A DNA stretch of 64,000 nt, taken from contig NZ_BDAM01000001.1 in the NCBI RefSeq assembly GCF_001895045.1, positions 744,001-808,000 on the forward strand, given 5' to 3'. A model generated the notes under the pieces. That model did no database searches and was not told where the DNA came from. It saw nothing but the letters and a program-made list of their open reading frames with translations. Source of the DNA: Rhodococcus coprophilus NBRC 100603. GTDB taxonomy: Bacteria > Actinomycetota > Actinomycetes > Mycobacteriales > Mycobacteriaceae. This document shows, piece by piece, positions 17,330 to 26,870 of the stretch (position 1 is its first letter; every line of letters starts with the position of its first letter). The translations under genes were made by a program, and so were the position numbers.

Positions 17330-17752
17330 GGCCCTGGTGAGGTTCACGCACGCCGCCAGCCACCGTCCACCAGAACCACGAGCCCGTCCAGCTCGAGCAA
17401 TGTCAACGCCGCACGCACCTGCTCGACCGGCACACCCGCCGACTCCGCCAAGACCGACGGAGTGCAACTGCCCGTGGCCGGAAAAGCCTCGTACACAAGA
17501 GAACTCTCCCTCGACAAGCCATCGAGATCGCGGCGGAACAACGCATCACGTCCGTCGTCACGCCCGAGCAGCGGACCGCATTCCTCCACGACCTCGTGCG
17601 CACTGCCCACCAGACGCGCTTCACCTTCCCGGATCATCCGGTGGCACCCCTGCGACGATGCGGAGGTCACCGGCCCCGACCGAGCCGTCGAGCCCACGTC
17701 GCCGTGTTGCGGGCGCCGCTACGTCATCCTGCTTCGACCACGACGATGCCCG
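17330..17752 (-). pseudogene. Truncated second copy of the dprA 3' end (left direct repeat)
   Basis: 423 bp nearly identical to 24224-24666 at the 3' end of dprA, in the same orientation. It encodes the last ~110 residues of DprA, ending LVVLVDGGWRRA with the stop preserved at 17344-17346. A ~20-bp deletion near 17680 and loss of everything upstream of about residue 233 make it non-functional. Nucleotide differences from the intact copy are scattered; I judge about 95% identity outside the deletion by eye. It reads straight into foreign sequence at about 17753. Confidence 0.9.
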
Positions 17753-17779
17753 CTGCCGCGGACCTGGTGGGATGAGTGC

Positions 17780-18410
17780 ATGGGAGAGCTACTGAACGGC
17801 GTCGGCATCCGCGGCTTTCGTAGTTTTCATGGAGAACTTCAAATTGGTTTCCCCTCTCCGAAAAGTTGAACCTCATTGCAGGGCAGAACAATAGCGAAAA
17901 ATTAAATGTATTTCGTGTCGTCCGCCGCATGCCTGATTTTCTTGGGAGCCCCCCGCGCGGATTAGATATACCGAGGTCGGCGACCGAAGACACCTTCAAG
18001 ATGGCCATTACTCTGAATAAGCGACGGGACGAATTAGTTGATCAATTGGTTGACTTAGGGGAAGGTCCGAACGCAGAGGTGGCGCGCATGCTAGATCATT
18101 CGTCTGTGTCTTACTGGTGGGGATCTCGTATGGCTAAGGATTGGACAAGCTCGCCACGGACTGTCACCGCGATCGCAGGCAAAATCGCTCCTGGGCGATG
18201 GCGTAAAGGGAAACTGGCTTTCGGCGATATGTTCCTACACGAGACTACCCAATCGGGAGCCCCTTGAGTGTGCGTCTCGGATCCTTGAACACCTGACTAG
18301 CTTTCAGGGTTACGTGGCCAGATGCGTGATTGACGTGAGCCGTCGAATCACGGTTGGTGACAATGACCAGGATGTCGCCGCTTCAATAAACGTGTCAGGT
18401 CTAGTAAAAC
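17780..18410 (+). pseudogene. Decayed AAA/OLD-like P-loop ATPase
   Basis: An ATPase N-terminus is recognisable across at least three frames. MGELLNGVGIRGFRSFHG begins at 17780. After a frameshift near 17850 the sequence continues as LNLIAGQNNSEKLNVFRVV (from about 17864), and a third frame from about 18240 (NREPLECASRILEHLTSFQG) seems to continue it. The expected Walker A GQNNSGKSN is altered to GQNNSEKLN, so the nucleotide-binding lysine loop is damaged as well. Members of this class (RecF/OLD-like) are frequent in defence systems and mobile elements. The base composition is lower in GC than in the neighbours, supporting foreign origin. Confidence 0.7.
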
Positions 18411-18411
18411 G

Positions 18412-18592
18412 TCTGCTTGCACTTCAGTTCCCCGCCCCAGAACGCCCCGGTCAGGTGATGACGAAAGAGGAAGCCGGTGCGAAACCGGCGCGGTCCCGCC
18501 ACTGTAATCGGGAAGCGACCCTCCACTCTGCCACGGCCCATGAGCCGAAAAGCAGGAGGGGAGCGACGATCCGAGAGCCAGGACACTCCCGT
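18412..18592 (+). promoter_or_regulatory. Cobalamin (AdoCbl) riboswitch
   Basis: The hallmarks of the class appear in order. GAAGCCGGTGCGAAACCGGC forms a paired element, followed by GCGGTCCCGCCACTGTAATC, then GGAAGC, and the B12 box AGCCAGGACAC at 18576-18586. About 270 nt separate the B12 box from the lipoprotein start at 18860. Within this stretch TCGGGG...CCCCGA at about 18612-18630 can pair as part of an expression platform. Cobalamin binding is expected to switch the downstream transport operon off. Confidence 0.95.
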
Positions 18593-18859
18593 CATCGCGA
18601 CCTCCTATTCGGGGCGGATTTCCCCGAGAGAGGTGGGCCGTCCACCATGCGCTTCACCGCGCCGTCGCTATGCCCCATAGCAACCTCCGGCGTATCCGGG
18701 CCCGACGACTCTTTCACTGTTCACGCCTGCCGTCTGCCCTAATTCGGCTCGGAACGCTGGCGACCTTGGCTAGGCTTGTCTCGATTCCTCGGCTACTCGA
18801 GCATCTGCCGGCACGAACTAGATCTTCAGTCGACCATTACCGCTCACCTGTGGAGAAAC

Positions 18860-20059
18860 ATGTCCCAACGGCCCATGACCGCCGCGCTTTCCGTGCTCGT
18901 CACTGCAGGTCTCGTCCTGAGTGCGTGCTCGTCCGACACTTCGGGCGCAGACACCGCCATCGACGCACGCGGCTGCATCACCGATTTCGACGCGAACACC
19001 GATTACTTCCCCGACAAGTCGACACTGTCGGACGCGAAGAACTTCACCCTCGAGTACCACGACAGCTACCAGGTACTCACCGTGAACCAGCCGCACCCAG
19101 GCGGAGCACCGGAATCATATGTTCTGGTCAAGTGCGGCGCCCCAGCTCCGGAACTGTCCGGCGACCTCACGGCGGCTCCGAAGATCTCGACGCCGATCAC
19201 CAGCCTGTACTCGGCCTCGACCACGCACCTGCCGCTGATCACCGAGCTCGGCCAACTCGACGTCCTGACCGGTGTCTCGAACGCCGGGTTCGTGTCCGAT
19301 CCCGCGGTGCGTGAGCGGATCGACGCCGGAGAGATCGTCGAGTATGCGCCCGGACAGACGGTGAACACTGAGACGGTTGTCGCCGCGGACCCGGATGTGC
19401 TGATGACCGGCGGCACCGACGATCCGTCGTACGCCAAGCTCCGCGCCGCCGGGATTCCGGTTGTCGCGAACGCCGAATACCTCGAGTCGACCGCCCTCGG
19501 GCGCTCCGAGTGGATCAAGGCGATGGCAGCGCTCACCGGCACCGAAGCACAGGCAGCGGACGTCTACTCGCAGATCCGCAGCGACTACGAGGACGTCTCG
19601 GCGAAGGCGCAGGGCGCCGCGGCCAGCCCGGTACTACCCGGCACGATGACCCAGGGCACGTGGTACATGCCCGCCGGTGGCAGCTACATCGGCGGACTGG
19701 TCCGCGACGCGGGCGGCAGCTACCCGTGGCTGACCAATCCGGCGACCGGCAGCCTGCAACTGAACTTCGAATCGGTGTACGCGCAGGCCGGCAGCGCGCC
19801 GACGTGGTTCGTCACCAATTCGTGGGAGACGACCGCCGACGCCGTCGCCGAGGATCCCCGCTACGGTCGGCTCGCCGCGGCCCGCGACGGCGCGGTGTGG
19901 TCGGCGACGAAGGCGATCGGCCCGACGGGCGGTAACGACTTCCACGAGCGCGGCGTCACCCGCCCCGACCTGGTGCTCGCCGATATTGTCGCGATCCTGC
20001 ATCCGGAACTGATGCCGAACCACGAGTTCGTGTTCTACCGGCAGGTGCCGCGGGCATGA
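18860..20059 (+). CDS. Periplasmic-binding-type lipoprotein of a corrinoid/metallophore ABC importer
   Basis: 399 residues from the ATG at 18860 with GGAGA 4 bp upstream. The lipoprotein signal ends in the lipobox LSAC (C23). The body is a BtuF/FecB-type clustered binding fold, preceded by an N-terminal extension (FDANTDYFPDK...YHDSYQVLTV) that is common in actinobacterial members. It captures the substrate outside the membrane and hands it to the permease. The cobalamin riboswitch upstream points to a corrinoid; the sequence alone cannot exclude a siderophore. Its stop overlaps the permease start (ATGA). Confidence 0.88.
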   Translation: MSQRPMTAALSVLVTAGLVLSACSSDTSGADTAIDARGCITDFDANTDYFPDKSTLSDAKNFTLEYHDSYQVLTVNQPHPGGAPESYVLVKCGAPAPELSGDLTAAPKISTPITSLYSASTTHLPLITELGQLDVLTGVSNAGFVSDPAVRERIDAGEIVEYAPGQTVNTETVVAADPDVLMTGGTDDPSYAKLRAAGIPVVANAEYLESTALGRSEWIKAMAALTGTEAQAADVYSQIRSDYEDVSAKAQGAAASPVLPGTMTQGTWYMPAGGSYIGGLVRDAGGSYPWLTNPATGSLQLNFESVYAQAGSAPTWFVTNSWETTADAVAEDPRYGRLAAARDGAVWSATKAIGPTGGNDFHERGVTRPDLVLADIVAILHPELMPNHEFVFYRQVPRA

Positions 20060-21180
20060 CGACGCTCCTGTCCCCTCCGCCGGCCCCGGTCACCGGGCCG
20101 GCGGACGGGAGCGGGCCGACGCCGGCACCGCGTGCGTTCTCGCGGCGGACCGCGATCACGCTGGCGCTGCTGGCCGCCTTCACGGTCGTGCTGTTCGTGC
20201 TCGCGCTGGCCCTCGGCCCGGTGCGGGTGCCGCTGGCGGACACCGCGCGGGTGCTGATCGGCGCTGCCCCCTCCGACCCGCGCTGGCAGGTGGTGGTGCA
20301 CGAACTGCGCTTGCCTCGTACGATCACCGCCGTCCTCGTCGGCGCGGCGCTCGGTGTCGCCGGCCTGCAGATGCAGACCCTGTTCCGGAATGCGCTCGCC
20401 GACCCGTTCGTTCTCGGAGCGAGTTCCGGGGCGAGTCTCGGTGTCGCGCTGGTCGTCGTCGCCGCGGGAGGCGCGGGCGCGGCGTCGTTCACGTCCGGTT
20501 TCGCGGGAGCGGGACGCGCGGGTGTCGTGGCGGCGGCCGCGACCGGAGCCGCTGTCGTCCTGCTGCTGGTGCTGCTGTTCTCGCACTGGGTGAAGAACGC
20601 CGTGACTCTGCTCCTGATCGGCGTGATGGTCGGCTCCGCCACCACCGCGATCGTGAGCGTCCTGCTGGTCTATGCCGATCCACAACGTGCGCAACACTTC
20701 CTGCTGTGGGGCCTGGGCAGCTTCGCCGCCACCACGTGGGCCGATCTCGTGCTCATGGCCCCGATCGTGCTGGTGTGCATCTGCTTCGCGCTCGCCACGG
20801 TCCGACCCCTCAACGCACTCCTGCTCGGGGAGGGTTACGCCCGAACGATGGGCATCAACGTCCGACGGGCCCGCCTGCTCACCCTGCTCGCGGCCTCGTT
20901 GCTGGCGGGAGTGACCACAGCGTTCTGCGGCCCGATCGGTTTCCTTGGTCTCGCCGTTCCGCACCTGTCCCGCCTCGCCGTCGGTACATCGGACCACCGG
21001 TCGCTGATGCCGACCGTCATCCTCATGGGGTCCGCCGTGGCGCTCGCGTGCGGCATCGTCAGCCAGGTCCCCGGCAGTGACGCAGTTCTTCCGCTCAACG
21101 CCGTCACCGCTCTGATCGGTGCACCGATCGTCGTGACGATCCTCGTCCGCAGCGGCCGCGGCGTCGGAGGTGCACTGTGA
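20056..21180 (+). CDS. FecCD/BtuC-type ABC transporter permease
   Basis: 374 residues, ATG at 20056 within the stop of the binding-protein gene. After a cytoplasmic N-terminus of about 35 residues the first membrane helix begins. The family pattern LRLPRTITAVLVGAALGVAG-LQMQTLFRNALADPFVLG is present (given here in two parts). Ten membrane segments and the GFLGLAVPHLSR cytoplasmic coupling loop follow near residue 295. It forms the dimeric membrane channel of the importer and overlaps the next gene by 4 bp (GTGA), so the operon is translationally coupled. Confidence 0.93.
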   Translation: MTTLLSPPPAPVTGPADGSGPTPAPRAFSRRTAITLALLAAFTVVLFVLALALGPVRVPLADTARVLIGAAPSDPRWQVVVHELRLPRTITAVLVGAALGVAGLQMQTLFRNALADPFVLGASSGASLGVALVVVAAGGAGAASFTSGFAGAGRAGVVAAAATGAAVVLLLVLLFSHWVKNAVTLLLIGVMVGSATTAIVSVLLVYADPQRAQHFLLWGLGSFAATTWADLVLMAPIVLVCICFALATVRPLNALLLGEGYARTMGINVRRARLLTLLAASLLAGVTTAFCGPIGFLGLAVPHLSRLAVGTSDHRSLMPTVILMGSAVALACGIVSQVPGSDAVLPLNAVTALIGAPIVVTILVRSGRGVGGAL

Positions 21181-23024
21181 CCGACATCGTCCTGGACCTC
21201 ACCGACGTCGCCGTCGGCTATCACGCCCGCCGCGCGCTGCGCCCGACCACCACGCGGATCGTCGCGTCGAACATCGACGCCGTCGCACGCCGCGGCGAGC
21301 TCACCGTGCTGCTCGGCCCCAACGGCAGCGGCAAGTCCACGCTGCTGCGCACCCTGTGCGGCCTCCAACCCGCCCTCCGCGGCTCGATCACATTGTCCGG
21401 CAACGACCTGCATGCAATGCCCGCCGCCGAGCTTGCCCGCACGATCGCCGTCGTGCTCACCGACCGCGTCGATCCTGGCATGCTGTCGGCGCGCGAACTG
21501 GCCGGACTGGGCCGCACCCCGCACCTCGGACTCGGCGGCCGAATGAGCGCCCGCGACCACGCCGTGGTCGCGTGGGCGCTCGACGCGGTCGGCGCCACCC
21601 ATCTGGCCGACAGGCCGGCGAGCGAACTGTCCGACGGCGAGCGCCAGCGCGTGCTCACGGCGCGGGCGCTTGCCCAGGAGCCCACCCTGTTGGTCCTCGA
21701 CGAGCCCACCGCGTTCCTCGACGTCCCGTCACGGGTCGCGCTCGTGGAACTGCTTCGCGCAGCAGCCCGGGAACACCATCTGGCGGTGGTGATGTCGACG
21801 CACGACCTCGAGTTGGCGCTGCGTGTCGCCGACCATGTCTGGCTCGTCGACCGCACCGGCCGATTGTCCACCGGCACGCCGGAGCGCCTCGCGCTCGACG
21901 GCCGGATCGGCGACGTCTTCGATTCGCGGTCACTGCGATTCGACGTCGGCTCCGGGGTCTTCACTCTCACGCCCGCACACAAGTCGCCGATCCGGGCGCG
22001 GGTCCGCGCGCCGCAGCCGGCAGCGTCGGCGATCGGGCGGCTACTCGGTCGCGAGGGCGCAGTGGTGGTCGACGACGACCAGCCCGCCGATCTGCTCGTC
22101 GACACAGGCGAGGGTCTCTCGGTTTTCCACGCCGGGAAGGTGCGTCCCGTCGAAGGCCTGGATGCGCTCCCACGTGTCCTACGTGACCTGCCGCGCACCG
22201 ATCTACGCCTCGCCCCAGGCAACGCGGTCACCTCGACACTCGAAACCTTGGCCAGCATCAGCCCGTGCTTCACCGCCACGACGGGCGATCGCGGCCCGAG
22301 CAGATGGCGCCCGGTGCACGACCTCTACGACTACGCCGACGCGCTCGCCGGCGTAGTCGGACACGTAGGCGCCCGGATCGGCACCACCGAATACCGGGTG
22401 GCGGCATCGACGCTGTATCTCGGCTACGCGGCCCGCCTGTGGTCGCTCGCGCTCGGCGGCATCGTCCGCACCGGAATCCTGCCCGACGTCGACCGCCTGC
22501 TGTGGCGTGACGTGGACGGTCGCATCGACCTGCACCTGCCCGATGCCGTCGGCTGGGTGGACGACGATCTGGACGAGCTGGTCGAGGTCGCGCGCGAGAT
22601 GGTCCTGGGCCGCCACATGGAACCGATGATCGCGGCGATCCGCGCCGCCGAGCCCATGTCGGCGCGCCTGCTGCGAGGCAACACCGCGTCGGCGCTGATC
22701 GGCGCAGCCCGAGTACTCGACGGAGAGGCCGGAACAGTCGCCGTGAAACTCGCGGAGACGATCCTCCTCGACCAGCGACTGGTTGACACAGTCGACCGGG
22801 AGGGACCCGGGTTCCGGCGCCGCAGCTGCTGCCTTTTCTATCGCACGCCCGCCTCCGGCTACTGCGAGGACTGCGTGCTCACCCGTCCGAATGCACTCGA
22901 AAAGAAGGAGGAATCGGCATGTCCACCACTCAACCCGAAGGGGTCCAGACCCCGATTATCGTCACCGAAAGCGGAGGGCGCGAACAGCGCTGGCCTATCC
23001 CGGCGGACGAGGAATCGCTGCTGA
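21177..23024 (+). CDS. Fused ABC importer ATPase and FhuF-like 2Fe-2S reductase
   Basis: 615 residues, GTG start at 21177. Residues 1-265 form an importer ATPase: Walker A GPNGSGKS (47-54), signature LSDGE (151-155), Walker B LLVLDEP (171-177) and H-loop H209 (STHD). After a linker domain, residues ~350-566 match FhuF ferric-siderophore reductases and end with the 2Fe-2S motif CCLFYRTPASGYCEDC (C551, C552, C563, C566). The fusion joins the import motor to a reductase on the inner face of the membrane. Under a cobalamin riboswitch, reduction of the cobalt centre of an imported corrinoid is a possible role. The last ~35 codons overlap the next gene, suggesting stop-codon loss or a run-on tail. 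Confidence 0.88.
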   Translation: MTDIVLDLTDVAVGYHARRALRPTTTRIVASNIDAVARRGELTVLLGPNGSGKSTLLRTLCGLQPALRGSITLSGNDLHAMPAAELARTIAVVLTDRVDPGMLSARELAGLGRTPHLGLGGRMSARDHAVVAWALDAVGATHLADRPASELSDGERQRVLTARALAQEPTLLVLDEPTAFLDVPSRVALVELLRAAAREHHLAVVMSTHDLELALRVADHVWLVDRTGRLSTGTPERLALDGRIGDVFDSRSLRFDVGSGVFTLTPAHKSPIRARVRAPQPAASAIGRLLGREGAVVVDDDQPADLLVDTGEGLSVFHAGKVRPVEGLDALPRVLRDLPRTDLRLAPGNAVTSTLETLASISPCFTATTGDRGPSRWRPVHDLYDYADALAGVVGHVGARIGTTEYRVAASTLYLGYAARLWSLALGGIVRTGILPDVDRLLWRDVDGRIDLHLPDAVGWVDDDLDELVEVAREMVLGRHMEPMIAAIRAAEPMSARLLRGNTASALIGAARVLDGEAGTVAVKLAETILLDQRLVDTVDREGPGFRRRSCCLFYRTPASGYCEDCVLTRPNALEKKEESACPPLNPKGSRPRLSSPKAEGANSAGLSRRTRNRC

Positions 23025-23494
23025 AGCTGATACACATCCTGTTCGACGAGTACTGGGACGACATCTGGTTCGGCATCATGATGGAGGGCGCCGCATGGGA
23101 GGTCGCGGCACCGAACGCTTCCAAACGCATCTCGATGTTCGACGGTTACGCGACGATCGACTTCGGCCGCTGGCACTTCCATCTCTGCATCGGCGAACAC
23201 AACGACAGCGGACCGGAACTCGGCCGGATCCGCCGCTGCTCGCGCGCCGAGCTGTACCGCAGCCTCGGCGCCGACGGCACCCCACACTCGTGGGGCGTCC
23301 GCATGTTCAACGGCCGCGACGAACAGATGATGACAGCCATGCTGCCCAACCCATTCCTGACCAAGACACAGCAGATCCGCGACGAACTCGACTTCTCGCA
23401 GCTCCAACTCTGGGACCGCCTGCGCGAGCAGTACCTCGGGCTCGGTCCGGATGAGTTGGACCGCCAAGGCAGGGGCTACCGCCATCAGAGCTAG
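22919..23494 (+). CDS. Conserved hypothetical protein, fourth gene of the riboswitch operon
   Basis: 191 residues from the ATG at 22919, which has a strong AAGGAGGA site 6 bp upstream; it overlaps the fused ATPase-reductase gene by 106 bp in another frame. I do not recognise the family with certainty. It is soluble, with no signal peptide or membrane segment. Aromatic and histidine residues cluster in FDGYATIDFGRWHFHLCIGEH (shown here as 21 residues less the last: FDGYATIDFGRWHFHLCIGE) followed by H, and in RRCSRAELYRSLG and SWGVRMFNG. Co-transcription with the importer implies a role in handling the imported compound. Confidence 0.75.
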   Translation: MSTTQPEGVQTPIIVTESGGREQRWPIPADEESLLKLIHILFDEYWDDIWFGIMMEGAAWEVAAPNASKRISMFDGYATIDFGRWHFHLCIGEHNDSGPELGRIRRCSRAELYRSLGADGTPHSWGVRMFNGRDEQMMTAMLPNPFLTKTQQIRDELDFSQLQLWDRLREQYLGLGPDELDRQGRGYRHQS

Positions 23495-23503
23495 CGATAG
23501 CTC
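23488..23503 (+). terminator. Short hairpin at the end of the riboswitch operon
   Basis: GAGCTA-GCGA-TAGCTC: a perfect 6-bp stem with a GNRA-type tetraloop that includes the stop codon of the 191-residue protein. It is short for a terminator, so confidence is low. Confidence 0.35.
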
Positions 23504-23550
23504 GCGCACTACCTTGCATCGAGCACCCGCGACCGGGGTGGGTGGCCTGC

Positions 23551-24180
23551 TCAGTCGGTCCGCGCCGGATCGTCGACCAGACGTAGTTCGGGGCGAGTGC
23601 TCGGGTCCCCGATGAGCGTGCGGAGCCTGGGCAGCTTGAAGGACAGTTCGCCAGCAAATTCCTTGATGGATACCGTTCGCCTCGGCGAGTTCGAGGGCCC
23701 GCTCGAGGAGAACAGGGACCTCTCCGGGATAGTCGGCGACGGGTTCGGGCCGGCCAGTTCCAGGTTCGTAGCTGCCGGAGCCTCTGGTAGGCGCGCCGGT
23801 AGGTTGCACCACTCACCGCACCGACCTCGCGGCACCGGTAGATCAGGGGGTCGACCGAGTACACCCCCTTGCTCGCCGAGTTGTGCGAGCGCGTTGAGGT
23901 CGAGTCGGCCCGGCAAGAGTGGGGTGATCTGGGCGGAAGGCGTGAGCAGCTCTGCGGCGAAACGATCTGCCTCCCTTTTCTGCGGGTCCCCGGCGACACG
24001 GTCCCCGTGCATGACCAGATGCCCAAGTTTCGTACGCCGCCGGTGAAGCGGTGCCGGTAGACGTCGTAGGCACGCCCTCCTCCCAGCGCAGTCACCTGGG
24101 CACGACTGAAGATCGAGTTGGCGCGCAGTTCGGTGTTTGAGATTCGAAAAATGACTGCGCGAGATTCCACAGATCGTGAT
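23551..24180 (-). pseudogene. Decayed ImmA/IrrE-type metallopeptidase
   Basis: Pieces of the family appear in several frames on the minus strand. LGHLVMH (24007-24027), the second half of the HELGHLVMH zinc motif, is preceded by T-K in place of H-E. Next come GDRVAGDPQKREADRFAAEL and ALAQLGEQ. A shifted frame then gives DPLIYRCREVGAVSGATYRR, and the remainder ends SIKEFAGELSFKLPRLRTL. Loss of the zinc-binding HE pair and at least two frameshifts mark it as a relic. Intact relatives cleave phage or ICE repressors or act in toxin-antitoxin-like modules. It lies just inside the right edge of the island. Confidence 0.75.
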
Positions 24181-24223
24181 ACTTCGCCATCACGTCCTGC
24201 GGATTCATCAGCGAATAATGAAG

Positions 24224-24666
24224 GGCCCTGGTGAGGTTCACGCCCGCCGCCACCCGCCGTCCACCAGAACCACGAGCCCGTCCAGCTCGAGCAGGGACAA
24301 GGCAGCCCGCACCTGCTCGACCGGCACACCCGCCGACTCCGCCAAGACCGACGGAGTGCAACTGCCCGTGGCCGGAAAAGCCTCGTACACAAGAGAACTC
24401 TCCCTCGACAAGCCATCGAGATCGCGGCGGAACAACGCGTCACGTCCGTCGTCACGCCCGAGCACCGGACCGCATTCCTCCACGACCTCGTGCGCACTGC
24501 CCACCAGACGCGCTTCACCTTCCCGGATCATCCGGTGGCAACCCTGCGACGATGCGGAGGTCACCGGACCCGGCACCGCCATCACGGGCTTGCCGAGCCG
24601 CCGAGCCCACGTCGCGGTGTTGCGGGCGCCGCTGCGCCATCCTGCTTCGACCACGACCGTGCCCGC
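24224..24666. repeat. Right direct repeat: intact dprA 3' end
   Basis: 443 bp matching 17330-17752 in direct orientation, 6,894 bp apart start to start. Both copies begin at GGCCCTGGTGAGGTTCACGC, just past the dprA stop. This copy is continuous with full-length dprA. It differs from the left copy by a ~20-bp segment missing there and by scattered substitutions. Confidence 0.9.
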
Positions 24667-25365
24667 AGAGAGCGCCGCGATCAGCCGATTGCGCGCCAGG
24701 AACCGGTACCGGGCAGGCGTGGTCCCCGGCGGGTATTCGCTGACGACGAGACCCGCCTCCGACACCGAGCGGAGCAACGCGGAGTGCGCTGCGGGATAGG
24801 CGCGGTCGACGCCGCAGGCAAGGACGGCCAGCGTCGTTCCCCCGACCCCCAGCGCCGCTCGGTGCGCGGCAGCATCGACCCCGAACGCCGCACCGGACAC
24901 CACTGTCCACCCGTCGACGGCAAGATCCCCGGCGACCTGCGCGGTCACGTGTTCGCCGTATCCGCTCGCCGCGCGGGTGCCCACGATGCCCACGGACCGG
25001 TCGGTCAGTTCGTCGATTCTTCGCTCCCCCCACACCCACAGCGCGAGAGGCGGCGCGTCGGCGTCGACGGTGGTGGTCAGCAACTCGAATCCGAGTAGGT
25101 GCCAGGCCGGCCACTCCTCGTCGTCAGGCGTGACCAGGCGCCCTCCCGATCGTGCGAGCCTGCCGAGATCCTCCGCCGCCGTGTCGAGGTGCGCCCGCGC
25201 GGCAAGCCGGGACGACAACCGTCCGCCCGCGCCGCCCTGACGAACCGCCTCGGCCACCTCGACCACACCATGTTCCCCGATCGCCGCGGACAACGACCGG
25301 GACGCGCCCTGCCCCACCGTGGACAGATACGCCCAGGCGAGACGTCTCTCGTCGGCCGCGCTCAC
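24238..25365 (-). CDS. dprA: DNA-processing protein DprA (single-stranded DNA loader of RecA)
   Basis: 375 residues from the GTG at 25365, which overlaps the yifB stop (GTGA). DprA binds incoming single-stranded DNA and loads RecA during transformation-like uptake. The Rossmann-like DNA-binding core has SVGIVGTRAASGYG (124-137), VVSGAAFGVDAAAH (155-168), GTTLAVLACGVDRAYP and GTVVVEAGWRSGARNTA. A C-terminal winged-helix-like DML1 domain follows. The last 143 codons are the part duplicated at 17330-17752. Although the region has been rearranged, this copy appears intact. Confidence 0.93.
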   Translation of the reverse strand: MSAADERRLAWAYLSTVGQGASRSLSAAIGEHGVVEVAEAVRQGGAGGRLSSRLAARAHLDTAAEDLGRLARSGGRLVTPDDEEWPAWHLLGFELLTTTVDADAPPLALWVWGERRIDELTDRSVGIVGTRAASGYGEHVTAQVAGDLAVDGWTVVSGAAFGVDAAAHRAALGVGGTTLAVLACGVDRAYPAAHSALLRSVSEAGLVVSEYPPGTTPARYRFLARNRLIAALSAGTVVVEAGWRSGARNTATWARRLGKPVMAVPGPVTSASSQGCHRMIREGEARLVGSAHEVVEECGPVLGRDDGRDALFRRDLDGLSRESSLVYEAFPATGSCTPSVLAESAGVPVEQVRAALSLLELDGLVVLVDGGWRRA

Positions 25366-26870
25366 ACCAGGCCCCTGTCGCGGAACTGCAGTGCTGTCGC
25401 GACGTGCACCTCCGACGGAGAGGCCGCACCCGCGAGATCGGCCAGCGACCACGCGACGCGCAACGCCCGGTCGGCGCCTCTCGCGGTGATCGCACCCTTC
25501 CGCAGCGCTCGTTCGACGGGCCGCAACGCCGCCGGTGGGAGCCGGAACTTCTGCCGCAGAGCAGGTCCGGGGACCTCGGCGTTGGTCGACCAGCCGAACT
25601 CCGCCCATCGTTGACGTGCAGCATCGCGCGCATTCGCGACCCGCGCGCGGACGTCGTCGGTGCTTTCTCCCGTCTCGTCCATCAACGCGCTCGTCGCGAC
25701 GGATTCCATGCGGATGCGCAGATCGACGCGGTCGAGCAACGGGCCCGACAGTCGCCCGAGGTATCGGCGCCGCGCCGTGGGTGTGCACACGCAGTCGGCG
25801 TCGCGCGCTGGGGCACACGGACACGGATTCGCGGCGAGGACCAGTTGGAATCGTGCCGGGTATCGTGCCACGCCGTCACGCCGCGCAATCCGGACTTCGC
25901 CGTCCTCGAGGGGTGTCCGCAGCGCTTCGAGTGTTTTCGTGCCCATCTCGGCAACTTCGTCGAGGAAGAGGATTCCGCGGTGTGCTCGGCTTACCGCACC
26001 CGGCTTCGCCATCCCGGTCCCACCACCGATCAGCGAGCTCACGGAGGCGGTGTGGTGCGGTGCGATGAAGGGGGGTTCCGTCACCAGAGGACGGTCGGCG
26101 GTGAGCGTGCCGGCCACCGAGTGGATCGCGGTCACTTCGAGGGCGTGCTTCTCGGTGAGCACGGGAAGAATTCCCGGGAGACGCTGTGCGAGCATCGTTT
26201 TGCCGATCCCCGGCGGACCGGTGAGCATGAGATGATGCGCCCCCGCAGCGGCCACTTCGAGGGCGCGGCGCGCCTCGTACTGCCCGACGACTTCGCTCAG
26301 GTCCCCGCGGACCGCACGCGGAGGGGCGCGACGCTCGCCGGGACGCTCGAGAGCACCGTCACCCTGCAACCAGCGCACGAGGTCCGCGAGGGTATCGGCG
26401 CCGTAGATCTCGATCCCCCCCACCAGCGCAGCCTCGATCATCGTCGCGGTGGGCACCACCACCCTCCGCCACCCGTGATTCATCGCAGTCACGACCGCGG
26501 GCAGCACTCCCCGGATCGGCCGCAGCCTGCCGTCCAGTGCGAGTTCACCGAGCAGAACGGTCTTCTCGAGGAGATCGAGAGGGACGACGTCGGCGGCGTT
26601 GAGCACCGCGCACGCAAGACCCACGTCGTAGACGCTGCCGACTTTGGGCAGCGTCGCCGGCGACAACGCCAGCACGACTTTCGAATCCGGCCATGCGGCA
26701 CCAGAATTGGACACCGCGGCCCGCACCCGATCGCGCGACTCCTGGAGTGCGGTGTCGGGCAGACCGACCATGGTCACGCCGGGTAACCCCCGCCCGATAT
26801 CCGCTTCGATCTCGACGACCTGCCCGTCGACACCCGAGACCGCCACCGACCAGGCTCTACCCAGCGCCAT
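25362..26870 (-). CDS. YifB/ComM-family Mg chelatase-like AAA+ ATPase
   Basis: 502 residues from the ATG at 26870, which shares one base with the yraN stop (TGATG). The N-terminal ChlI-like/Lon-type domain (residues 1-170) is followed by an AAA+ module with Walker A GPPGIGKT (218-225), a Walker B GILFLDEV and a C-terminal Mg_chelatase_C helical domain. ComM homologues act as helicases that promote branch migration in natural transformation. Its operon with yraN and dprA is conserved and suggests a role in processing incoming DNA. Confidence 0.93.
   Translation of the reverse strand: MALGRAWSVAVSGVDGQVVEIEADIGRGLPGVTMVGLPDTALQESRDRVRAAVSNSGAAWPDSKVVLALSPATLPKVGSVYDVGLACAVLNAADVVPLDLLEKTVLLGELALDGRLRPIRGVLPAVVTAMNHGWRRVVVPTATMIEAALVGGIEIYGADTLADLVRWLQGDGALERPGERRAPPRAVRGDLSEVVGQYEARRALEVAAAGAHHLMLTGPPGIGKTMLAQRLPGILPVLTEKHALEVTAIHSVAGTLTADRPLVTEPPFIAPHHTASVSSLIGGGTGMAKPGAVSRAHRGILFLDEVAEMGTKTLEALRTPLEDGEVRIARRDGVARYPARFQLVLAANPCPCAPARDADCVCTPTARRRYLGRLSGPLLDRVDLRIRMESVATSALMDETGESTDDVRARVANARDAARQRWAEFGWSTNAEVPGPALRQKFRLPPAALRPVERALRKGAITARGADRALRVAWSLADLAGAASPSEVHVATALQFRDRGLV

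What the first reader, a model, noticed from the sequence alone, without database searches (positions are those of the whole stretch)
18412..23494. Cobalamin-riboswitch operon with an importer ATPase fused to an FhuF-like reductase
A clear AdoCbl riboswitch precedes four tightly coupled genes: a BtuF/FecB-type lipoprotein, a BtuC-type permease, and an ATPase whose C-terminus is an FhuF 2Fe-2S domain (CC-x10-C-x2-C, C551-C566). The fourth gene is a 191-residue unknown protein. FhuF domains are known to reduce ferric siderophores in the cytosol. Placing one on the motor of a B12-regulated importer suggests coupled uptake and one-electron reduction of a metal centre. Candidates are Co(III) to Co(II) of a corrinoid, or a cobalt- or iron-chelate taken up when B12 is low.
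Basis: partly seen in the sequence, partly recalled or inferred. Interest (0 to 1): 0.8.

Follow-up and report, generated by a model that had tools for sequence, protein, structure and literature searches.

The report
B12 importer with built-in reductase
A soil bacterium carries a vitamin-B12-controlled uptake system whose motor protein is fused to an iron-sulphur protein; the same pairing recurs next to B12 genes in other bacteria, suggesting that B12 is chemically reduced as it enters the cell.

Summary
A cobalamin riboswitch (18436-18608) precedes a FecB/BtuF-type lipoprotein, a BtuC-type permease, an ABC ATPase fused to an FhuF 2Fe-2S domain, and a fourth gene, which is Pfam DUF7676. The fusion is not a one-off: of 66 relatives with both parts, 38 are fused and 28 separate; a riboswitch lies upstream in 36 of the 38. 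DUF7676 recurs while its 2Fe-2S partner changes: FhuF in actinobacteria, a probable C-terminal ferredoxin domain in cyanobacteria. In Ca. Contendobacter one gene string reads BtuC-BtuD-CbiZ-CobD-FhuF-adenosyltransferase-DUF7676. The cyanobacterial gene order matches an Anabaena cluster published as a cobalamin importer, whose ferredoxin-like gene was left unstudied. Best reading: a corrinoid importer whose FhuF and DUF7676 parts reduce and hand on incoming corrinoid. Regulation is inferred from the RNA family, cargo from homology; the chemistry is untested. Cobalt-chelate uptake is the main rival, because FhuF relatives also sit beside cobalt transporters. The window copy is a Prescottella-type operon on a ~6.9-kb insertion at dprA. 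Nine paper searches found none linking FhuF or DUF7676 to B12.

The parts
18436..18608 (+). cobalamin riboswitch aptamer (RF00174)
   Evidence: Rfam cmscan 69.8 bits, E 3.6e-15
18860..20059 (+). substrate-binding lipoprotein (FecB/BtuF-like, Peripla_BP_2), 399 aa; lipobox-like LSAC at residue 23 (read by eye)
   Evidence: PF01497 82.6 bits; 88% identical to R. hoagii homologue, dN/dS 0.17
20056..21180 (+). BtuC/FecCD-type permease, 374 aa
   Evidence: PF01032 254 bits; best solved relatives HmuU, a second hemin permease and BtuC; dN/dS 0.08
21177..21941 (+). ABC ATPase domain of the fusion protein, residues 1-255
   Evidence: ABC_tran 101 bits; Walker A, signature and Walker B residues invariant in 7-sequence cross-phylum alignment; dN/dS 0.17
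21960..22193 (+). about 80-residue C-terminal appendage of the ATPase, present also in unfused ATPases
   Evidence: R288, L290, R292, G294 invariant in the 7 actinobacterial, gammaproteobacterial and cyanobacterial ATPases aligned
22194..22904 (+). FhuF-like 2Fe-2S domain of the fusion protein; Cys551, 552, 563, 566
   Evidence: PF11575 32.2 bits; profile match to FhuF 7qp5 E 2.3e-9; cysteines invariant in 38 of 38; dN/dS 0.31
22917..23021 (+). 35-codon tail of the fusion ORF overlapping the next gene; fused relatives end before or near this point
22919..23494 (+). DUF7676 protein, 191 aa, conserved H86-x-H88-x-C90
   Evidence: PF24724 224 bits; H, H, C invariant in 12 cross-phylum sequences and in 60; dN/dS 0.11
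17330..17629 (.). left copy of dprA 3'-end direct repeat flanking the inserted segment
   Evidence: 300 nt, 96% to 24224-24523; DprA_WH match
24224..24523 (.). right copy of the repeat, at the 3' end of dprA (24238-25824, minus strand)
   Evidence: DNA_processg_A 224 bits; uninterrupted site in G014

Best explanation
This is a riboswitch-controlled corrinoid (B12-type) importer with its own reductive processing module. When cellular B12 falls, the riboswitch lets the operon be expressed (inferred from the RNA family). The lipoprotein captures a corrinoid and passes it to the BtuC-type permease, driven by the ATPase. The FhuF domain, fused to the ATPase, sits at the cytoplasmic exit and supplies single electrons from its 2Fe-2S cluster. 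DUF7676, with a conserved HxHxC motif, is the likely corrinoid-handling partner: it would bind the incoming Co(III) corrinoid, which is reduced to Co(II) and stripped of its upper ligand, and pass it to an adenosyltransferase. Shown: a riboswitch by sequence and structure model, gene order, fusion, conservation, and recurrent linkage to B12 genes. Inferred by homology: corrinoid as cargo. Inferred only: reduction, the roles of FhuF and DUF7676, and hand-over.
For: Riboswitch upstream in the window, in 8 of 8 plasmid loci searched (three phyla; a ninth fetched plasmid locus, L162, was not searched), and in 64 of 69 named loci with a recognisable first gene. In G083 a riboswitch (57.4 bits) lies 45 nt before a stand-alone FhuF. 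DUF7676 recurs with a swapped 2Fe-2S partner: FhuF in actinobacteria, a probable fused TRX-like ferredoxin in cyanobacteria, DUF1636 in two Azospirillum loci. L152 Ca. Contendobacter: BtuC-BtuD-CbiZ-CobD-FhuF-adenosyltransferase-DUF7676. Two receptors next to DUF7676 match BtuB best among solved structures (Diaphorobacter E 2e-31; Trichormus E 7e-26). Anabaena cluster of matching gene order: btuB2 mutant 50-fold and btuD mutant about 4-fold lower 57Co-cyanocobalamin uptake (PMC10878165: abstract, passages, section 9). M. shimoidei (L105) keeps riboswitch and operon with no match for CobH, CobK or CobN but four B12-binding-domain matches, three above cut-off. FhuF of E. coli: about -0.36 V at pH 7.4 (PMC8068687, passages).
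Against: No biochemistry; no structure (prediction switched off); DUF7676 has no PDB relative at E up to 10. The Anabaena btuF mutant had wild-type uptake, and the alr4030-DUF7676 match rests on gene order. NCBIfam BtuF, BtuC and BtuD cut-offs are not reached. FhuF relatives sit beside CbtA cobalt transporters in 12 loci, and FhuF-DUF7676 beside CbiM, CbiN, CbiQ and an ATPase in L119, which fits cobalt too. The CobH marker of B12 synthesis is in 43 of 46 and 47 of 47 DUF7676 genomes tested, odd for a pure scavenging system. The three genes missing in M. shimoidei may be one cluster loss or a draft gap. L155 and L158 have DUF7676 without an annotated 2Fe-2S neighbour, L153 had no match to my FhuF, ferredoxin or DUF1636 queries, and L145 and L147 lack FhuF. 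L152 showed no riboswitch, though its operon starts at the very edge of the fetched stretch. Of 39 FhuF loci, 13 had no riboswitch within 6 kb.
Confidence: 0.55

Rival explanations
1. Cobalt-chelate importer: the system brings in a Co(III) chelate, FhuF reduces it to labile Co(II) as E. coli FhuF does for ferric siderophores, and the cobalt feeds de novo B12 synthesis.
For: FhuF beside CbtA in 12 loci, all with a riboswitch within 6 kb; FhuF-DUF7676-riboswitch-CbiM-CbiN-CbiQ-ATPase in L119; CobH in 43 of 46 and 47 of 47 genomes tested against 84 of 296 in a phylum sample.
Against: BtuB-like receptors; CbiZ-CobD-FhuF-adenosyltransferase-DUF7676 string; cobalamin uptake by the Anabaena cluster; M. 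shimoidei keeps the operon with no CobN, CobH or CobK match. The phylum comparison is confounded: the nine same-family genomes listed all have CobH.
Confidence: 0.2
2. General corrinoid reductase, only loosely tied to transport: FhuF and DUF7676 supply reduced corrinoid for adenosylation in both salvage and de novo synthesis, and the fusion merely fixes stoichiometry.
For: FhuF or DUF7676 occur away from a BtuFCD-type importer: L119 beside cobalt-transporter genes, L129 DUF7676 near CobD, a G114 FhuF match next to a tetrapyrrole methylase, FhuF beside the adenosyltransferase in L152.
Against: In 69 of 80 named loci a binding protein or receptor gene lies with DUF7676, and in 38 of 66 FhuF is fused to the importer ATPase.
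Confidence: 0.18
3. The FhuF domain is a redox or Fe-S sensor that gates the ATPase rather than an electron donor to cargo.
For: Fusion to the motor and relatively fast evolution of the FhuF part (dN/dS 0.31).
Against: Separate genes in 28 of 66 loci; in cyanobacteria the probable ferredoxin domain is fused to DUF7676, not to the ATPase.
Confidence: 0.04
4. Ordinary ferric-siderophore importer that has come under B12 control.
For: FecBCD/FhuF family membership.
Against: Recurrent riboswitch control and B12 gene neighbours; BtuB-like receptors.
Confidence: 0.03

Closest known systems
Anabaena sp. PCC 7120 alr4027-btuB2-alr4030-btuF-btuC-btuD (PMC10878165; abstract, passages and section 9 read)
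   Same: Cobalamin riboswitch, BtuFCD-type importer and a ferredoxin-like gene in one cluster; gene order as in Trichormus L159, where that gene is DUF7676 with a probable C-terminal TRX-like ferredoxin domain; cobalamin uptake lowered in btuB2 and btuD mutants.
   Different: Ferredoxin fused to DUF7676 (in L159) rather than FhuF fused to the ATPase; outer-membrane receptor present; no alr4030 mutant appears in the parts read.
E. coli BtuCD-F
   Same: Type II importer architecture and proposed cargo class.
   Different: NCBIfam BtuF, BtuC and BtuD cut-offs not reached; no FhuF or DUF7676 parts in that system (recalled).
E. coli FhuF, ferric-siderophore reductase (PMC8068687, passages read)
   Same: C-C-x10-C-x2-C cluster motif; profile match E 2.3e-9 to solved FhuF 7qp5.
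   Different: Here fused to an importer ATPase and B12-controlled; E. coli FhuF is distant in sequence (long branch).
BtuM (PMC6072759, abstract read)
   Same: B12 uptake protein that also changes its cargo (decyanation).
   Different: A membrane transporter that uses a cysteine ligand on cobalt; no FhuF or DUF7676 (recalled).
CblC/MMACHC and CobR (recalled, not read here)
   Same: Cytosolic corrinoid reduction before adenosylation is the proposed job.
   Different: No sequence relation was looked for.

Membership tests
Cobalamin riboswitch (RF00174) | Match to the curated covariance model above its gathering score | tested here: met
   69.8 bits against 31.5
Cobalamin riboswitch (RF00174) | Ligand-dependent control of the operon | not testable with these tools
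   needs a reporter assay
FecCD/BtuC-type importer (type II ABC importer) | FecCD permease, Peripla_BP_2 binding protein and ABC ATPase encoded together | tested here: met
   PF01032, PF01497, PF00005 over cut-off
BtuFCD equivalogs of NCBIfam | Curated cut-offs for BtuF, BtuC, BtuD | tested here: not met
   BtuF 13.1 of 234, BtuC 188.8 of 334, BtuD 103.8 of 281 bits
BtuFCD equivalogs of NCBIfam | Transport of corrinoid | not testable with these tools
   inferred from the Anabaena cluster
FhuF family | C-terminal 2Fe-2S motif CC-x10-C-x2-C (PF11575) | tested here: met
   32.2 bits against 20.5; invariant in 38 of 38
FhuF family | Larger FhuF domain (PF06276) | tested here: inconclusive
   13.8 bits, below 25.2, for the single protein; the alignment profile matches FhuF 7qp5 at E 2.3e-9
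FhuF family | Ferric-siderophore reductase activity | not testable with these tools
   biochemical
DUF7676 (PF24724) | Match above gathering score | tested here: met
   224 against 27 bits
BtuM-like cargo-modifying transporter (works-like only) | Chemical change of B12 during uptake | not testable with these tools
   hypothesis of this report

The most novel reading that the evidence does not exclude
FhuF-type proteins are not only ferric-siderophore reductases: many actinobacterial FhuF relatives are corrinoid reductases. With DUF7676, a new corrinoid-handling family (HxHxC), they form the reductive step between B12 import and adenosylation. Fusion to the importer ATPase makes a transporter that reduces its cargo as it leaves the membrane.
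Probability: 0.45. Interest if true: 0.82.

Novelty: new variant of a known kind. Interest (0 to 1): 0.64.

Why it matters
To my knowledge (recalled), few genes are assigned to the reduction of imported corrinoids before adenosylation in aerobic bacteria; a 2025 review says that a decyanation step in M. tuberculosis remains unconfirmed (PMC12713380, passages). The recurrent pairing of a B12-controlled importer with exchangeable 2Fe-2S proteins and one unstudied family gives concrete candidates that can be tested by single-gene deletion or with purified proteins. It would also widen the meaning of FhuF annotations, which are usually read as iron genes.

Tried and rejected
Considered and set aside: (1) an assembly artefact or chance fusion - rejected, since 38 of 66 relatives are fused and the parts are under purifying selection. 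(2) Iron regulation - not supported by the riboswitch survey, but iron boxes were not searched. (3) A structural relative for DUF7676 by profile - none at E up to 10. (4) A riboswitch just upstream of the stand-alone FhuF of the window genome: model R1 gave 28 bits but Rfam found none, so it is not claimed, although one search counts that locus among its 26 of 39. (5) Phylum-wide DUF7676 by even sampling: 1 of 296 genomes, the window genome itself; in its family 22 of 401 genomes, 4 of 30 genera. (6) A co-occurrence test of B12 prototrophy - confounded by lineage. (7) An FhuF tree to separate B12-linked from iron-linked FhuF: only one known siderophore FhuF was in it and 13 of 58 other rows had no B12 link in the fetched stretch, so it cannot decide. 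(8) Paper searches: 9 ran. 'FhuF + cobalamin riboswitch' gave one paper with unrelated mentions; 'DUF7676' none; 'DUF1636 + cobalamin' none; 'alr4030' two papers, of which only PMC10878165 was read in part. Passages of PMC2667541, PMC4531530 and PMC8305020 held nothing on the fusion.

Limits: 40 of 50 FhuF places were fetched (the window copy and nine others not). One of the 40 (L066) gave no FhuF alignment. The 26 of 39 counts a riboswitch on either strand and on either side. The search for related loci kept 80 of 169 confirmed DUF7676 places. In one search, 11 of 80 loci had no recognisable first gene, and L151 was counted as lacking although its riboswitch lies upstream of its receptor match. 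R1 was trained on 17 riboswitches that include 8 of the named loci (these 8 were found by Rfam first). Of 14 plasmid hits nine were fetched and eight searched for riboswitches. In one search rows under 250 bits or 250 residues were dropped and stop signs were written as X. CbtA was checked by Pfam in one member, CobW in one; the others are in their BLAST clusters. CobH was tested in the genomes of all named loci except L107 (not held), and a few genomes were reached twice. Trees are quick searches with long branches (E. coli FhuF, L152).
Full report
WHAT IS THERE. The window lies in a 4.55-Mb genome (contig C1, 744001-808000). Named relatives identify its neighbours: loci L108, L111 and L124, from Rhodococcus sp. 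105337, R. gordoniae and Rhodococcus sp. CH91, lie on contigs of the same lengths as those of same-genus genomes G014, G015 and G008. The genome is therefore taken to be a Rhodococcus. The operon reads: cobalamin riboswitch 18436-18608, lipoprotein 18860-20059, permease 20056-21180, ATPase-FhuF fusion 21177-23024, DUF7676 gene 22919-23494. The first three genes overlap by four bases each; the fusion ORF runs 106 nt into gene 4. In the 38 fused relatives the fusion ends between 63 nt before and 21 nt past the start of the DUF7676 match, so the window's last 35 residues are probably read-through without function. Compared with the R. hoagii copy, dN/dS is 0.17, 0.08, 0.17, 0.31 and 0.11 for lipoprotein, permease, ATPase, FhuF core and DUF7676: the parts are maintained, and FhuF changes fastest.

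THE FhuF PART. FhuF_C matches over cut-off at residues 548-568, while PF06276 does not reach its cut-off. An alignment of 38 sequences has all four cysteines invariant, and its profile finds the solved FhuF 7qp5 at E 2.3e-9. The ATPase keeps its catalytic motifs, and an about 80-residue appendage between ATPase and FhuF is shared with unfused ATPases from Streptomyces, cyanobacteria and a gammaproteobacterium.

HOW COMMON. A search with the FhuF half found matches in 48 of 151 related genomes. I fetched 40 of the 50 places. The whole five-part system is present in other Rhodococcus genomes with ATPase and FhuF as separate neighbouring genes, and fused in the Prescottella group and Dietzia. It is patchy: DUF7676 is in 22 of 401 genomes of the window's family and 1 of 296 in a phylum sample. 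A DUF7676 scan of named genomes gave 169 confirmed places, of which 80 were kept. Of 66 loci with both parts (65 named plus one plasmid), 38 are fused and 28 separate. On a permease tree the two states need at least three changes. Of 69 named loci with a recognisable first gene, 64 have a riboswitch upstream, including 36 of 38 fused and 27 of 27 separate ones. A 65th, L151, has one upstream of its receptor match that the script missed. The two Pseudonocardia loci without a riboswitch also lack FhuF. In the broader FhuF set, 26 of 39 loci have a riboswitch match within 6 kb, on either strand and either side (one of these, L053, is not confirmed by Rfam); 13 have none. Given 1 to 10 such elements per genome, my rough arithmetic expects about one in a hundred by chance. 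In G083 the riboswitch lies 45 nt before a stand-alone FhuF.

WHAT TRAVELS TOGETHER. Outside actinobacteria, DUF7676 sits between a TonB receptor and the importer genes in Diaphorobacter, Azospirillum, Paracoccus, Trichormus, Nostoc and Acaryochloris (there with one inserted gene and no ATPase match in the stretch), and follows a receptor in Methylocella. These seven, plus a Rhodococcus plasmid, have a riboswitch: 8 of 8 loci searched. Of 11 further named loci searched with Rfam, 8 have one; L145, L147 and L152 do not (the L152 operon begins at the edge of its stretch). In the two cyanobacterial proteins scanned, DUF7676 carries a C-terminal TRX-like 2Fe-2S ferredoxin match, E 1.3e-4 and 5e-4, just under Pfam's cut-off. 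In two Azospirillum loci the operon ends in DUF1636. So the 2Fe-2S partner is exchanged while DUF7676 stays. Exceptions: L155 and L158 show no annotated 2Fe-2S neighbour, and L153, L145 and L147 gave no match to my FhuF, ferredoxin or DUF1636 queries. H86, H88 and C90 of DUF7676 are invariant in 12 cross-phylum sequences. L152 (Ca. Contendobacter) is the most telling neighbourhood: permease, ATPase, CbiZ, CobD/CbiB, FhuF, Cob_adeno_trans (PduO-type, recalled) and DUF7676. L119 has FhuF-DUF7676 followed by a riboswitch and CbiM, CbiN, CbiQ and an ATPase. L129 has DUF7676 near CobD, with two genes between. Further FhuF genes lie beside CbtA in 12 loci, all with a riboswitch within 6 kb.

SUBSTRATE. 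For corrinoid: the two receptors tested beside DUF7676 match E. coli BtuB best among solved structures. The Anabaena cluster with the same gene order as Trichormus L159 takes up 57Co-cyanocobalamin; its btuB2 mutant is about 50-fold and its btuD mutant about 4-fold lower, while its btuF mutant is unaffected (PMC10878165: abstract, passages, section 9). The identity of alr4030 with the DUF7676-ferredoxin gene is my inference from gene order. M. shimoidei (L105) has an intact riboswitch and fused operon with no match for CobH, CobK or CobN, but four B12-binding-domain matches, three above cut-off; these absences may be one event or a draft gap. For cobalt: the CbtA and CbiM-N-Q neighbourhoods, and the CobH marker of B12 synthesis in 43 of 46 and 47 of 47 DUF7676 genomes, a few reached twice. 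The phylum figure, 84 of 296, is not a fair baseline, because the nine same-family genomes listed there all have the gene.

MECHANISM. E. coli FhuF has a potential of about -0.36 V at pH 7.4 (PMC8068687, passages), low enough to reduce Co(III) corrinoids (established chemistry, recalled). Reaching Co(I) would need help. I therefore propose Co(III) to Co(II) reduction and removal of the upper ligand, with DUF7676 as binding partner and an adenosyltransferase as acceptor. None of this is shown. BtuM is a precedent for a B12 uptake protein that alters its cargo (PMC6072759, abstract).

ORIGIN OF THE WINDOW COPY. The operon is flanked by a 300-nt direct repeat (96%) of the dprA 3' end, 6,894 bp apart. 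Rhodococcus sp. 105337 (G014) has one uninterrupted copy of that site, with the two window flanks overlapping by 443 bp. The window permease groups with those of R. hoagii and Rhodococcus sp. OK519 (SH-aLRT 99) and then Prescottella defluvii (86), apart from a Rhodococcus group (100). The native Rhodococcus-type operon of G014 (C1, about 364486-369173) is missing from the corresponding place in the window genome with a clean junction. The simplest reading is replacement of a native separate-gene operon by a Prescottella-type fused one. An independent loss and gain cannot be told apart from this.

VERDICT. It is a new variant of a known kind: a B12 importer with a recurrent redox module that I found unremarked in the nine paper searches made here.

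Noticed in passing
window 17330-24523: Operon sits on a ~6.9-kb segment flanked by a duplicated dprA 3' end; the site is uninterrupted in Rhodococcus sp. 105337.
   Followed up: yes
window 17866-18267 (+) and 23551-24012 (-): Two short ORFs inside the segment that look by eye like remnants of an ATPase and of an ImmA-like peptidase; Pfam finds no family in either.
   Followed up: partly
L154:8658-13766: Second riboswitch-controlled two-permease FecBCD importer in Rhodococcus sp. PD04, ending in a TRX-like 2Fe-2S ferredoxin gene with a weak CbiX match.
   Followed up: partly
L047, L050, L051, L054-L058, L061, L062, L064, L065: FhuF-like genes beside CbtA cobalt transporters, each with a riboswitch match within 6 kb.
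   Followed up: partly
L145 and L147 (Pseudonocardia): Importer-DUF7676 operon without an FhuF match and without a detected riboswitch.
   Followed up: no
L035 and L036 (G055, G089): Prescottella-group genomes keep an FhuF match beside the CobW-cluster gene, but no importer or DUF7676 match in the fetched 20 kb.
   Followed up: no
L107:5346-6531: Two DUF7676 genes in tandem (Mycolicibacter acidiphilus).
   Followed up: no
L070:10350-10896 (G001): DUF7676 match split between two frames.
   Followed up: no
L044:9892-11258 (G114) and L048:7101-8253 (G044): An FhuF match (with one in-frame stop) next to a tetrapyrrole methylase, and an FhuF gene beside a pyridoxamine-phosphate-oxidase-like gene.
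   Followed up: no
L129:2867-7510 (Mycolicibacter engbaekii): DUF7676 without an importer match nearby, flanked by a CobD/aminotransferase pair and a dienelactone-hydrolase-like gene on one side and a nitrile hydratase beta subunit on the other, in a genome with no match for CobH, CobK or CobN.
   Followed up: partly
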